A DNA stretch of 64,000 nucleotides from contig CALVGZ010000003.1 in assembly GCA_944327225.1 (NCBI GenBank), positions 62,001-126,000 on the forward strand, written 5' to 3'. Below the pieces are notes generated by a model. That model was not told the origin of the DNA and searched no databases. It worked only from the letters and a program-made list of their open reading frames with translations. The position numbers and the translations under genes were made by a program. Positions 1,746 through 5,604 of this stretch are shown piece by piece. This stretch comes from Candidatus Gastranaerophilales bacterium (GTDB lineage Bacteria; Cyanobacteriota; Vampirovibrionia; Gastranaerophilales; Gastranaerophilaceae). Within the stretch, counting starts at the first letter, position 1. The number at the start of each line of letters is the position of its first letter.

Positions 1746-1820
1746 TGGAGCGGAAGACGGGACTCGAACCCGCGACATCTTCCTTGGCAAGGAAGCATTC
1801 TACCACTGAATTACTTCCGC
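1746..1820 (-). tRNA. tRNA-Gly (anticodon GCC)
   Basis: The minus strand folds as a standard cloverleaf. The acceptor stem GCGGAAG pairs with CTTCCGC, the anticodon loop is CTTGCCAAG with anticodon GCC, and the T arm is GCGGGTTCGAGTCCCGT. The 3' CCA is encoded. The 75-nt length fits tRNA-Gly. A terminator follows immediately. Confidence 0.97.
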
Positions 1821-1965: not shown

Positions 1966-2256
1966 ATGAAAAAAATAACATTATGCAGCATTTTAACGGT
2001 CGGAATAATATCTATAAGCAATATTTGTTGTGCTGAAACGACAAATGTGTATGTAATAAACAATATCTCTCAAACACCGTACAATCAAGGTTCAAATATT
2101 ATGTGTACCAATAACGGGTCAATTTGTACAAACGGATATTTTATGCTTTCAACAAGGGGAACAAGATATGTCCAGCCTCAATGGAAAAGACAAACTCTAA
2201 GAGAAAAAAGGCTTCAAGAAGAAAATATAAGGGCAGCTGCAAAAATAAAATATTAA
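1966..2256 (+). CDS. Small secreted protein with paired-Cys repeat module
   Basis: Not recognised. I chose the ATG at 1966 over the upstream in-frame ATG at 1915 because it begins a proper signal peptide (MKKITLCSILTVGI, cleavage near CCAE). The mature part holds one copy of a module of the form MCT-x5-ICTNGYFM-x2-S-x3-TRYV, then a basic, arginine-rich tail. A degenerate relative with two copies lies immediately downstream. Two cysteines per module suggest an oxidised extracytoplasmic fold. Function unknown. Confidence 0.75.
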   Translation: MKKITLCSILTVGIISISNICCAETTNVYVINNISQTPYNQGSNIMCTNNGSICTNGYFMLSTRGTRYVQPQWKRQTLREKRLQEENIRAAAKIKY

Positions 2257-2266
2257 GGAGTACACC

Positions 2267-2544
2267 ATGAAAAAACTTGCAACATTACTAGCTGTATTTT
2301 GTTTTTTACCATGTTCTGCTTTTTGTGCAGTTATGATGAATAATAACGGAATAAGTGTTTCGAATTAATATATACGCCAATGTGTATGACCGGAAACACC
2401 TTATGTGCAATCGGAAAATATGTAATGACTTCATCAACTTCAAAACCGCTATATGTTGAAGGTAACATGGTTTGCACAAGCGATAAAAGAATATGTACAA
2501 ACGGTTATTGGGTCATGTATTCTAATGCAACAAGATACATGTAA
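2267..2544 (+). pseudogene. Frameshifted paralog of the paired-Cys secreted protein
   Basis: The ATG at 2267 has an AAGGAG ribosome site and encodes a signal peptide (MKKLATLLAVFCFLPCSAF), but the frame stops at 2366-2368 after 33 codons. The neighbouring frame (ATG at 2380, stop at 2542-2544) continues with two copies of the module in the preceding gene: MCMTGNTLCAIGKYVM and NMVCTSDKRICTNGYWVM. One indel between about 2350 and 2366 would restore a secreted protein of roughly 90 residues. No homopolymer explains the shift here, so true decay is possible. Function unknown. Confidence 0.7.
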
Positions 2545-2561: not shown

Positions 2562-2864
2562 ATGAAAAAAAACTTTATATTACTTATGCTCACTTGTCTT
2601 ATTATGACTTCTGCCAGTGTATACGCAAAAGCTCATCCCGGATCGCAACCGAATAAAGGCGGACATATAGCTATACGTGCACATTCTCATCAACCTGCAC
2701 CACCAAATATGCACCATCCTGCACCACCACCTGCAGTTTATCATCACCCTGCACCACTTCCACCAAACTATAATTGGTGGTCAAGAGGCCCCGGATGCAC
2801 TCATTTTTTCCCGTTTTGGTGCAGATGTAACGGGGGAATATTTAGCTTAAACATTTCAATTTAA
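2562..2864 (+). CDS. Small secreted His/Pro-rich protein
   Basis: A 100-residue product with a signal peptide (MKKNFILLMLTCLIM, cleavage near VYA). The mature chain has three spaced copies of an H(H/Q)PAPxP-like unit, about nine histidines in all, and a C-terminal CTHFFPFWCRC with three cysteines. His- and Cys-rich secreted peptides often bind transition metals, but that is inference. It lies in a run of three plus-strand small secreted genes and ends before a terminator at 2886. The ribosome site is GAGGAAAAG. Confidence 0.75.
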   Translation: MKKNFILLMLTCLIMTSASVYAKAHPGSQPNKGGHIAIRAHSHQPAPPNMHHPAPPPAVYHHPAPLPPNYNWWSRGPGCTHFFPFWCRCNGGIFSLNISI

Positions 2865-2943: not shown

Positions 2944-5604
2944 ATGATGAAAACAGTTGATGAAATTAGAGAAGGTTTTTTAAGTTTTTTTGAAAAAAAA
3001 CATAATTCTACACGTGTTAAAAGTTCGAGTTTGATACCTGATAATCCGACCTTGCTTTTAACAAGTGCCGGCATGGTACAATTTGTACCATATTATTTAG
3101 GTATAGAAAAATGCCCATATACACCACCAAGAGCAACAACTTGTCAAAAATGTGCTCGTGCAGGCGGTAAAGATTCCGATATTGAAAATGTCGGAAGAAC
3201 CCCTCGCCACCACACTTTTTTTGAAATGCTGGGAAATTTTGCTTGGGGAGATTACTATAAAAAAGAAGTCATACCTTGGGCTTGGGAGTTTGTTACAAGC
3301 GAAGAGTATCTTGGATTAGATAAAAACCGTCTATGGGTAACAATTTTTGAAACAGATGATGAGGCCTATGAAATTTGGAAAAATTCAACCGACATTGACC
3401 CTAAAAGAATAATAAGAAAAGGCAAAAAAGATAATTTCTGGGGTCCCCCGGGGCCAACAGGCTCTTGCGGACCTTGTAGCGAAATTCATTATGACCTTGG
3501 TGAACATTTAAAATGCAGCGAAGATTGCTCCATTGCAACCTGCGAATGTGACAGATGGGTTGAAATTTGGAATATGGTATTTACCGAATTATTCCAAGAT
3601 GAAGAAGGAAATCAAACCCCCCTTGACAAGAAAAATGTTGATACAGGAATGGGCTTGGAGCGTATCGCAATGGTTTGCCAAGGAGTTGAATCAACATTTG
3701 AAACAGATATTTTAAAACATATCTTAAACAAAATTTGTGAAATTTCAGGCAAAAAATACAAAGAAAATGAAAAAACAGATATATCACTAAGAATTGTTGT
3801 TGACCACGCTCGTTGTATTTCATTTATGATAGCAGATGGCATAATGCCATCAAACGAAGGCAGAGGCTATGTTTTAAGAATGATTTTAAGACGTGCATTA
3901 AGACATGGCTACCTTTTAGGACTTGATTTGCCTTTCTTGGCACCAATTATAGAAACCATAATTGAAAAATATTCTTCTCAATATCCCGAATTAAAAGAAA
4001 ATGAAAAGAAAATTAAAAATACTATTCTAAAAGAAGAAGAACGCTTTAAGCTTACTCTTGATAAAGGATATCAACTAATTGAAAGTGCAATCGAAAAAGC
4101 ACAAAACGACAATTCTAAAACAATATCCGGAGATGATGCATTTAAATTGTACGATACATACGGTTTTCCCTTTGAGTTAACAAAAGAAATAGCCGATGAA
4201 AAAGGATTAACTGTTGACGAAAAAGTGTTTAAAATCGCCATGGACGAACAAAAACAAAGAGCAAGAAACGCTATGCAAAAAGTTGTTATTACGGACGATT
4301 TGAACTATATAAACAATCCGCCAACAGAATTTACCGGCTATGAAAATTATGAAGGTAATGCAGAAATTATAGCCATTGTCGACAAAAACGGAAAAAACAT
4401 TGAAACTGCTCAAGATGGTGTATTTGATATCATTTTAAACTCAACTCCTTTTTATGCAGAATGCGGCGGACAAATTGGAGACAGCGGAATTTTAAACATT
4501 AACAATGAAAATTATGAAGTGATTAAAACTTTTAAAGTTCAGGATGTTTTTGTTCACAGAACTATCATTGGCGAAAATGAAATTAAAAAAGGTGACAAAG
4601 TCAAAGCAAAAATCGATATCCAAAAAAGACTAGAAATAACCAAACATCACTCATTAGCCCATCTTCTACAAGCAGCACTTCAAAAGGTTTTAGGACGTGA
4701 CGTTCACCAAGCAGGTTCCTATGTTGAAGAAAATAAAACCAGATATGACTTCACTTTTGACAGGGCATTAACAAAAGATGAACTTAAAAAAGTTCAAAAC
4801 ATTATAAATAATTGGATTAGCAATGGACTTAAAAGAACAACAAAAATAATGTCACTGGATGAAGCAAATGCAACAGGTGCTATGGCATTATTCGGAGAAA
4901 AATATGGTGATACCGTAAGAGTAGTAAGCTTTGATGATTACAACGGAAATTGTCAGTCTAAAGAACTTTGTGCAGGTTGTCATGTTAATGATGCTAAAGA
5001 TTTAAGAATGGCAAAAATCATATCAGAATCCGCAAGTTCTGCAGGCGTAAGAAGAATTGAAATAGCTTGTTCCAATTCCGCATTTGAACTTTTAGAATCT
5101 AAGGCGGATGAATTGGATAAATTATCACATGATAATAAAATCCCTGCTGATAAAATTCAAGAAAAAATTGATAAATTAACTCAAGAAGTTAAGGATTTAT
5201 CCTCTAAAATCGGTGATATGGAAGCTCAAAGAGCAAAAGATAGCTTTAATACTTTCTTATCCAAAACAAAAGAAAAATCAAATACAAAAGTTTTGGTTAC
5301 AAAAATTGAAGACTTTGCTCCAAATGCAATAAAACTTGGAATAGATTTAATTTCATCCAAACTTGGCGAAAGTGTTGTGGTATTTTGCTCAATGAAAAAA
5401 GACGGAACGGTCTTTATAATCTCCAAAGTAAGTGATAATCTTACTAAAAAAATATCTGCCGGTGCTTTAGTTAGCGAAATTGCAAAAGCACTCAAAGGAA
5501 ATGGGGGCGGAAGACCTCAAATGGCACAAGGTATGGGAAAAACTCAAGAAGGTATTGAGGATATTTTATTAAAAATCGAAGAAGATATATTAAATAAACT
5601 CTAA
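2944..5604 (+). CDS. alaS: Alanyl-tRNA synthetase
   Basis: Attaches alanine to tRNA-Ala and hydrolyses mischarged Ser/Gly-tRNA-Ala. At 886 residues it is full length for the family. The N-terminal class II core includes the TTCQKCARAGGKDSDI and RTPRHHTFFEMLGNF segments. The editing domain shows the zinc ligands H569/H573 and C676/H680. A C-terminal C-Ala domain ends with the Gly-rich GNGGGRPQMAQG motif. A second ATG directly follows the first, and neither has a ribosome site. Monocistronic, between two terminators. Confidence 0.98.
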   Translation: MMKTVDEIREGFLSFFEKKHNSTRVKSSSLIPDNPTLLLTSAGMVQFVPYYLGIEKCPYTPPRATTCQKCARAGGKDSDIENVGRTPRHHTFFEMLGNFAWGDYYKKEVIPWAWEFVTSEEYLGLDKNRLWVTIFETDDEAYEIWKNSTDIDPKRIIRKGKKDNFWGPPGPTGSCGPCSEIHYDLGEHLKCSEDCSIATCECDRWVEIWNMVFTELFQDEEGNQTPLDKKNVDTGMGLERIAMVCQGVESTFETDILKHILNKICEISGKKYKENEKTDISLRIVVDHARCISFMIADGIMPSNEGRGYVLRMILRRALRHGYLLGLDLPFLAPIIETIIEKYSSQYPELKENEKKIKNTILKEEERFKLTLDKGYQLIESAIEKAQNDNSKTISGDDAFKLYDTYGFPFELTKEIADEKGLTVDEKVFKIAMDEQKQRARNAMQKVVITDDLNYINNPPTEFTGYENYEGNAEIIAIVDKNGKNIETAQDGVFDIILNSTPFYAECGGQIGDSGILNINNENYEVIKTFKVQDVFVHRTIIGENEIKKGDKVKAKIDIQKRLEITKHHSLAHLLQAALQKVLGRDVHQAGSYVEENKTRYDFTFDRALTKDELKKVQNIINNWISNGLKRTTKIMSLDEANATGAMALFGEKYGDTVRVVSFDDYNGNCQSKELCAGCHVNDAKDLRMAKIISESASSAGVRRIEIACSNSAFELLESKADELDKLSHDNKIPADKIQEKIDKLTQEVKDLSSKIGDMEAQRAKDSFNTFLSKTKEKSNTKVLVTKIEDFAPNAIKLGIDLISSKLGESVVVFCSMKKDGTVFIISKVSDNLTKKISAGALVSEIAKALKGNGGGRPQMAQGMGKTQEGIEDILLKIEEDILNKL

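What the first reader, a model, noticed from the sequence alone, without database searches (positions are those of the whole stretch)
1966..2544. New small secreted protein module: MCT...ICTNGY(F/W)VM...TRY
The module occurs once in the intact gene and twice in the broken neighbour. It has two cysteines and aromatic/Gly residues in fixed places. I do not recognise it. It may be a surface or toxin-like disulfide peptide specific to gut lineages.
Basis: seen in the sequence. Interest (0 to 1): 0.5.

Follow-up and report, generated by a model that had tools for sequence, protein, structure and literature searches.

The report
Exported two-cysteine repeat protein family
Some bacteria of the order Gastranaerophilales make small exported proteins built from one, two or four copies of a roughly 28-residue unit with two evenly spaced cysteines; the family has no clear match in the libraries searched and its job is unknown.

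Summary
Window 1966-2256 encodes an intact 96-aa protein with an export signal and one CX6C module. Window 2267-2544 is a frameshifted gene with two modules, intact in a related genome. The module defines a family with no acceptable match in Pfam, NCBIfam, PHROGs, PADLOC or PDB sequences; the nearest lead, E. coli YcgJ (PF05666), stays below its cut-off. Relatives in five genera of one Gastranaerophilales family carry one, two (A+B) or four (ABAB) modules, period 27-30 residues, with six residues between the cysteines in all 50 modules counted. No convincing hit lay outside that family in class-wide and phylum-wide samples. A homologous cysteine-free protein sits in the same chromosomal slot in some related genomes, so the cysteines more likely brace a fold than do chemistry. 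A VKOR-DsbA fusion that could oxidise them is encoded. Module codons are under purifying selection. I read it as a soluble exported binding protein made of disulfide-braced hairpins, repeats adding avidity; ligand unknown, AlphaFold models poor. I found nothing that supports a toxin. It is a real, apparently undescribed lineage-specific family of moderate interest.

The parts
1966..2256 (+). intact single-module exported protein, 96 aa (type B-like module plus basic C-terminal tail)
   Evidence: relatives; codon-level constraint
1966..2034 (+). predicted Sec signal peptide, residues 1-23 (read by eye; no signal-peptide program available)
   Evidence: sequence; cleavage site set by hand
2095..2175 (+). 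CX6C module SNIMCTNNGSICTNGYFMLSTRGTRYV; cysteine codons 2104-2106 and 2125-2127
2176..2253 (+). basic C-terminal tail (QPQWKRQTLREKR...)
2267..2544 (+). frameshifted two-module gene; first frame stops at 2366-2368, modules in another frame; an intact copy exists in a related genome (G010, locus L075 479-757)
2371..2457 (+). type A module YTPMCMTGNTLCAIGKYVMTSSTSKPLYV
2461..2541 (+). type B module GNMVCTSDKRICTNGYWVMYSNATRYM
2562..2864 (+). His/Pro-rich exported-looking protein, neighbour on the same strand, possibly the same transcription unit; function unknown
   Evidence: a terminator-like hairpin at 2886-2905 follows (a consensus match only)
1746..1820 (-). tRNA-Gly(gcc), left border of the slot
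2944..5604 (+). alaS (alanyl-tRNA synthetase, named from recall of its sequence), right border of the slot in this genus

Best explanation
A lineage-restricted family of small Sec-exported, soluble proteins made of a repeated ~28-residue module. In each module the two cysteines, six residues apart, most likely form one disulfide that braces a beta-hairpin; a conserved TNG or (V/I)G turn and further short strands follow. The disulfide is structural and would be put in by the VKOR-DsbA fusion that the genome encodes. The proteins most likely work by stoichiometric binding in the periplasm or just outside the cell (to an anionic envelope, mucus or other polymer, since most are basic), with two or four modules raising avidity. 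Shown: module and repeat structure, CX6C spacing, two cysteines per module, selection, distribution in the samples, cysteine-free homologue at the same slot, presence of VKOR and DsbA domains. Read by eye: the signal peptide. Inferred: the disulfide, the hairpin, the location after export, the binding function, the ligand.
For: 50 of 50 modules in 28 sequences (27 intact proteins and the window's post-shift stretch) have exactly six residues between the cysteines, and every mature stretch has two cysteines per module and no spare one; period 27-30 residues (the sequences were found with profiles of CX6C modules, and the cysteine-free relatives and the G020 relative are not in this count). The 14 single-module proteins have only these two cysteines after the cleavage site. 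Type A and B modules are homologous (hhalign score 33.6; 0 of 100 shuffles reach it, also with cysteines fixed). Four-module ABAB proteins exist in four genomes of genus g8. VKOR and DSBA domains lie in one 412-aa open frame at G000:C3:4691-5824 and were found in 21 of 21 genomes searched. Module codons, nonsynonymous against synonymous changes: window-G011 0 to 11, window-G010 2 to 11, G008-G015 1 to 7. Cysteine-free homologue: mature-only profile score 29.3 (probability 73%), 0 of 200 shuffles reach it, maximum 15.4; its profile finds 5 of the 14 single-CX6C proteins, none used to build it, at E 3.9e-6 to 4.1e-8. Mature pI 8.6 or more in 25 of 28 sequences. The low-confidence model of the two-module stretch has strands and no helix.
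Against: AlphaFold models are poor (mean pLDDT 48.7 and 59.9), so the hairpin is not established; the single-module model shows two short strands in the module and a helix at each end. Three of 28 sequences are acidic or near neutral (G023 pI 4.6, G001 5.6, G010 two-module 7.8), so basic charge is not a family rule. The cysteine-free profile missed 9 of 14 single-CX6C proteins at E 0.001. Selection on the module is weaker in one comparison (window-G017: 8 nonsynonymous to 9 synonymous, dN 0.14, dS 1.0). VKOR and DSBA occur in every genome searched, with or without the modules, so they permit but do not single out the disulfide. No ligand, expression or localisation data.
Confidence: 0.45

Rival explanations
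1. A distant relative of YcgJ (PF05666), a small exported-looking protein with two cysteine-pair motifs and no function given in its annotation, also on phage Fels-1 and on plasmids.
For: 8 of 15 rows of A4 match PF05666 weakly, best E 0.0044; 6 of 7 full proteins match at E up to 1, best 18.0 bits. YcgJ has NGVFCDVKEKLC, a CX6C pair.
Against: All scores shown are below the curated cut-off of 25 bits and the best stretches cover 16-19 positions. Profile-profile score 17.9 (probability 4%), reached by 1 of 100 column shuffles. YcgJ's first pair is CX4C and its two pairs start 47 residues apart, not 27-30.
Confidence: 0.15
2. A secreted antibacterial toxin or bacteriocin-like disulfide peptide.
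For: Small, mostly basic, cysteine-paired, exported-looking; gene content at the locus varies between genomes.
Against: No immediate neighbour recurs across genera that could be immunity or transport. Purifying selection on the module. No PADLOC hit for the two window sequences, one at E 0.49 for a four-module relative. Cysteine-free homologue in the same slot. The toxin-family names are weak (best E 0.029) and below cut-off.
Confidence: 0.07
3. The CX6C pair is functional: metal binding or redox, perhaps together with the His/Pro-rich neighbour.
For: A His/Pro-rich exported-looking neighbour with conserved cysteines lies between module gene and alaS in 10 of 13 loci.
Against: It is absent there in 3 of 13 loci, and its cluster has members only in loci of this genus. 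A cysteine-free homologue of the module protein persists.
Confidence: 0.1
4. Inhibitor of a host or rival enzyme (lysozyme or protease), in the manner of small periplasmic inhibitors.
For: Small, exported-looking, disulfide-type scaffold; multi-module forms resemble multi-headed inhibitors (recalled). YcgJ's neighbour in E. coli is pliG, an inhibitor of g-type lysozyme.
Against: No inhibitor family among the Pfam and NCBIfam matches listed for the module proteins, apart from the Phr-type name at E 0.26, which rests on the signal peptide; the YcgJ link itself is unproven.
Confidence: 0.15

Closest known systems
YcgJ family (PF05666)
   Same: Small exported-looking protein with two short cysteine pairs, one of them CX6C in an NGVxC...C context.
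   Different: Module proteins score below Pfam's cut-off; YcgJ has a CX4C first pair, no TNG, and 47 residues between pair starts; profile comparison is not clearly above shuffles.
Small periplasmic lysozyme inhibitors (PliG, PliI, MliC; recalled)
   Same: Size, export, disulfide-type scaffold (recalled).
   Different: None of these families is among the matches listed.
SHOCT domain (PF09851)
   Same: One relative (G318, L130) has two SHOCT-like stretches after its two modules, E 4.7e-6, 26.6 bits against a cut-off of 27.
   Different: Seen in that one relative only; not part of the module.

Membership tests
YcgJ (PF05666) | Score at or above Pfam's gathering score (25 bits) | tested here: not met
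   Best 18.0 bits among 7 proteins, 6 of which match at E up to 1; 8 of 15 alignment rows match at E up to 1
YcgJ (PF05666) | CX4C first pair, TFxNG before the second pair, RYF..G.RS after it (read from alignment A8) | tested here: not met
   all 50 modules counted are CX6C; in type B modules TNG follows the second cysteine instead
YcgJ (PF05666) | Profile-profile similarity above shuffled controls | tested here: inconclusive
   Score 17.9; 1 of 100 shuffles reaches it
Bacteriocin or secreted toxin | Recurrent immunity or transport partner next to the gene | tested here: not met
   No immediate neighbour recurs across genera (part of output cut). Two g8 loci (L122, L123) share a pair that looks like ParD/ParE (recalled), and clusters cl3 (HTH-like) and cl9 (prepilin-like) recur, mostly at some distance, in 7 and 4 loci
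Bacteriocin or secreted toxin | Growth inhibition | not testable with these tools
   needs experiment
Exported disulfide-braced repeat protein (general kind) | Cysteines in pairs tied to the module, oxidising machinery in the genome | tested here: met
Exported disulfide-braced repeat protein (general kind) | Signal peptide | tested here: inconclusive
   Read by eye in the 27 intact proteins; no prediction program was available
Exported disulfide-braced repeat protein (general kind) | Disulfide bond demonstrated | not testable with these tools
   needs mass spectrometry or structure

The most novel reading that the evidence does not exclude
The stretch between tRNA-Gly and alaS is an exchange slot for small exported binding proteins: single-CX6C, two-module and cysteine-free versions of one scaffold are swapped between species by recombination, because they meet the outside world (host, phage or rival). 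Between the window genome and its near relative G010, third-codon-position divergence rises from 0.10 in alaS (0.22 in another nearby gene) to 0.31 in the two-module gene and 0.42 in the single-module gene.
Probability: 0.2. Interest if true: 0.55.

Novelty: new variant of a known kind. Interest (0 to 1): 0.38.

Why it matters
It adds a protein family that the libraries searched do not hold. A scaffold that persists while its cysteine pair comes and goes, and that counts 1, 2 or 4 units, is a tractable case for how small exported proteins are built and replaced. The CX6C-TNG module also gives a marker for annotating such short genes in this lineage.

Tried and rejected
Weak module hits rejected after reading them: a methylase-like 611-aa frame in G023, an adhesin-like 805-aa frame in G254 and a 56-aa frame in G112. 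Other low-scoring hits were set aside on their short or interrupted frames or scores, without a closer reading: G257, G364, G371, G483, and most of the E 0.01-0.1 tail. In one search I translated only one strand, so for places on the minus strand (L019, L021, L022, L023, L038-L041, L045) the text shown is not the matched frame; they were not followed.

YcgJ as a true homologue: looked for, not established. Copies on viruses or plasmids: one scan of viral contigs with A5 matched 12 stretches by pattern, none confirmed; tblastn of a four-module relative against phages and of the single-module protein against plasmids found none. PDB sequences: best E 0.85 for A5, none for A1. Fold search was not run because both models are of low confidence. 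Papers: six searches, seen as listings and abstract starts only, no paper opened; no listed title or abstract start deals with this family. The two broad searches returned 10,859 and 415 papers, of which 20 and 10 were listed, so they say little.

In one search a crude cleavage rule cut four proteins at a wrong place and gave odd cysteine counts, and the start rule skipped two proteins; one search replaced it with cleavage sites set by hand. A serS comparison gave no result because the search string was not found. In one search the upstream region was shown for 10 of the 16 loci given; for the other six my alaS pattern did not match or nothing was printed. In one search alaS was found in 21 of 26 loci given.

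Full report
What is there. The window lies in a 1.73-Mb genome of 29 contigs. Of 13 relatives found in named records, 10 are titled Candidatus Gastranaerophilales and 3 'uncultured bacterium'. Positions 1966-2256 encode a 96-aa protein with a signal-peptide-like start and one module SNIMCTNNGSICTNGYFMLSTRGTRYV, followed by a basic tail. After ten bases, 2267-2544 encodes a second exported-looking protein with two modules, interrupted by a frame change: the first frame stops at 2366-2368 and the modules are read in another frame. A related genome, G010, has both genes side by side and the second intact.

More than chance. The bare pattern CX6C-xx-G-[YFKW]-[YFW], chosen after the fact, occurs three times in six frames of the window, only here, against 0.05 in shuffles. 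Type A, type B and single modules recognise one another as profiles: A-B 33.6, B-S 38.5, A-S 25.6, with 0 of 100 full shuffles and 0 of 100 cysteine-fixed shuffles reaching any of them; the closest control is A-S with cysteines fixed, 23.2.

The family. In the genus, a search with the single-module protein matched 16 of 28 genomes at E up to 1. Reading these and the matches, 14 of 28 genomes have a single-CX6C gene and 4 of 28 have a two-module gene (G000 broken, G001, G010, G023); 16 of 28 have at least one CX6C gene (G022, matched, has a cysteine-free form). A module profile built from this genus alone (A3) and run on 383 genomes of the family found multi-module proteins in other genera, the best at E 3.6e-7 to 2.8e-5. 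A two-module profile (A5), made from 11 genomes, then gave two-module units at E below 1e-19 in 14 of 383 genomes, in 5 of 41 genera (g1, g6, g7, g8, g24); three of the 14 (G000, G268, G032) had not given rows to it. Four genomes of g8 have four modules in the order ABAB. In 382 genomes drawn from the class the only match outside the family at E up to 0.01 was G483, E 0.003 with a stop in frame, set aside on those numbers; in 339 genomes of the phylum all 11 matching genomes at E up to 0.001 are of the same family. These samples overlap, and absence means absence at these thresholds.

Cysteines. I set cleavage sites by hand in 28 sequences (27 intact proteins and the window's post-shift stretch). 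All 50 modules have exactly six residues between the cysteines; each mature stretch has two cysteines per module and none besides; the period is 27-30 residues. The set was gathered with CX6C profiles and leaves out the cysteine-free relatives and the G020 relative described below. Type B modules all read CTNG from the second cysteine on (18 of 18); type A modules have G at the same place (18 of 18), mostly VG or IG. Single modules look more like B: mean identity 0.28 to B and 0.20 to A outside the cysteines. Mature pI is 8.6 or more in 25 of 28.

A cysteine-free homologue. One search showed another exported-looking protein of 95-105 aa upstream of alaS..[NT]P[PR][KR]QxLxxxGRYxxxSSxVRY[VI]xSxSxxKxxxHAARIxAxN, in 4 of the 6 genomes read there that lack a single-CX6C gene (G001, G012, G021, G023; not seen in G024, nor in G014, where only 352 bases were held). 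In G023 the order is tRNA-Gly, cysteine-free gene, two-module gene, His/Pro-rich gene, alaS: the window's order with the cysteine-free gene in place of the single-CX6C gene. In G012, G021 and, by coordinates, G026 it also lies between tRNA-Gly and alaS; in G003, G016, G020 and G022 it lies further from alaS or on its other side, in G022 still beside a tRNA-Gly. A profile of five such proteins (A10) run on 333 genomes of the family matched 17 at E up to 0.001. Among them are 5 of the 14 single-CX6C proteins of the genus, none in the profile (G007, G009, G018, G019, G027; E 3.9e-6 to 4.1e-8); the other 9 were not found. With signal peptides in, profile comparison gave 42.2, probability 93%; with them removed it gave 29.3, probability 73%, over 32 columns, 0 of 200 column shuffles reaching it (highest 15.4), reversed control 9.7. 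I take it as a homologue over the second half of the module and the start of the tail. G016 has both forms, so they are not simply alleles. G020's relative has cysteines at other places. Counting all kinds, 23 of 28 genomes of the genus have a member, the weakest being G013 (E 2.4e-5) and G020 (3.0e-13); of the five without (G002, G004, G014, G024, G025) three are under 90% complete. The kinds are interspersed on an alaS tree of 21 of 28 genomes (five of 26 loci given lacked the string I used, one partial locus was left out, one genome had no alaS match), but alaS may itself have recombined.

Oxidation. VKOR and DSBA domains were found over cut-off in 21 of 21 genomes, in G000 within one open frame of 412 aa. 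This allows disulfides in exported proteins; it does not prove this one.

Selection. Single-module gene, window versus G010: dS 1.25, dN 0.115; versus G011 dS 1.23, dN 0.112. In the module alone, nonsynonymous to synonymous changes are 2 to 11 (window-G010), 0 to 11 (window-G011), 1 to 7 (G008-G015) and, weaker, 8 to 9 with dN 0.14 and dS 1.0 (window-G017); the signal peptide evolves fast. After the frame change the two-module gene still shows dN 0.037, dS 0.82 against G010, so the break is recent, or an assembly error, or the part is still used.

Context. Of 13 loci fetched, alaS lies downstream in 12, tRNA-Gly upstream in 10 and a His/Pro-rich gene between module gene and alaS in 10. In the other genera the immediate neighbours differ from genus to genus (part of that output, covering the end of L131 and the start of L132, was cut). 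What does recur: an HTH-like cluster (cl3) in 7 loci and a prepilin-like cluster (cl9) in 4, mostly not adjacent; three g8 loci share a phosphorylase-like gene upstream; two other g8 loci share a ParD/ParE-like pair. These names are from recall of the sequences, and I did not test whether the recurrence exceeds chance.

Structure. AlphaFold2 with 12 and 14 sequences gave mean pLDDT 48.7 (two-module stretch; short strands, no helix) and 59.9 (single-module protein; two short strands in the module, helices at both ends). These do not settle the fold.

Known families. For the module itself Pfam and NCBIfam gave nothing over a cut-off where cut-offs are shown, and only weak matches otherwise: best E 0.0044 in Pfam (YcgJ), 0.013 in NCBIfam, 0.032 in PHROGs, 0.49 in PADLOC, 0.85 in PDB sequences. 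The cysteine-free proteins gave best E 0.017 in Pfam. YcgJ (PF05666) recurs weakly: 8 of 15 rows, best 18.0 of 25 bits. Against a nine-sequence YcgJ alignment the profile score was 17.9, reached by 1 of 100 shuffles. It serves as a comparison, not as a family to file this under.

Mechanism. Shown: repeated module, fixed cysteine pair, constraint, distribution in the samples, cysteine-free homologue. Inferred: one disulfide per module bracing a hairpin; a binding rather than catalytic role, since no enzyme family matches convincingly and the cysteines can be absent; avidity from repetition; an anionic partner, since most members are basic. The ligand is open.

Divergence at the slot. Window versus G010, third-position differences: single-module 40 of 96, two-module (post-shift) 18 of 58, alaS 86 of 886, another downstream gene 99 of 457; single versus alaS Fisher p 3.6e-14, two-module versus alaS 1.5e-5. 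The His/Pro-rich gene, next to alaS, has dS 0.29 against 0.19 for alaS. Codon constraint on alaS may explain part of it; replacement by recombination is the bolder reading.

Noticed in passing
window 2562-2864: His/Pro-rich exported-looking protein with conserved cysteines and a conserved ending F-x-[LF]-[NA]-[IF]-S-I. A profile built from 11 genomes that have the single-CX6C gene gave only 3 weak matches (best E 8.2e-7) in the other 17 genomes of the genus, though other His/Pro-rich genes sit near alaS in G001, G012, G014 and G023.
   Followed up: partly
window 1966-2544 versus 2944-5604: Synonymous-type divergence from relative G010 rises steeply from alaS to the module genes, hinting at allele replacement.
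   Followed up: partly
L130 5935-6429: Two-module relative in G318 carries two SHOCT-like stretches at its C-terminus, just under Pfam's cut-off.
   Followed up: no
L120, L121, L123-L127, L132, L079, L083, L086 and others: Many module genes lie within 2.5 kb of a contig end, several within 1 kb and some beside a tRNA gene, as if a repeat or recombining stretch broke the assemblies; L122 and L130 do not.
   Followed up: no
L122 6366-6887 and L123 1255-1768: A pair that looks like ParD/ParE (recalled) lies near the four-module gene in two g8 genomes.
   Followed up: no
L128 10756-12168: Pilin-like start followed by many cysteine-rich repeats in a 470-aa frame near alaS in G001.
   Followed up: no
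L185 (G020): Homologue of the cysteine-free protein with two cysteines at different positions in its likely mature part; a disulfide may have arisen more than once on this scaffold.
   Followed up: no
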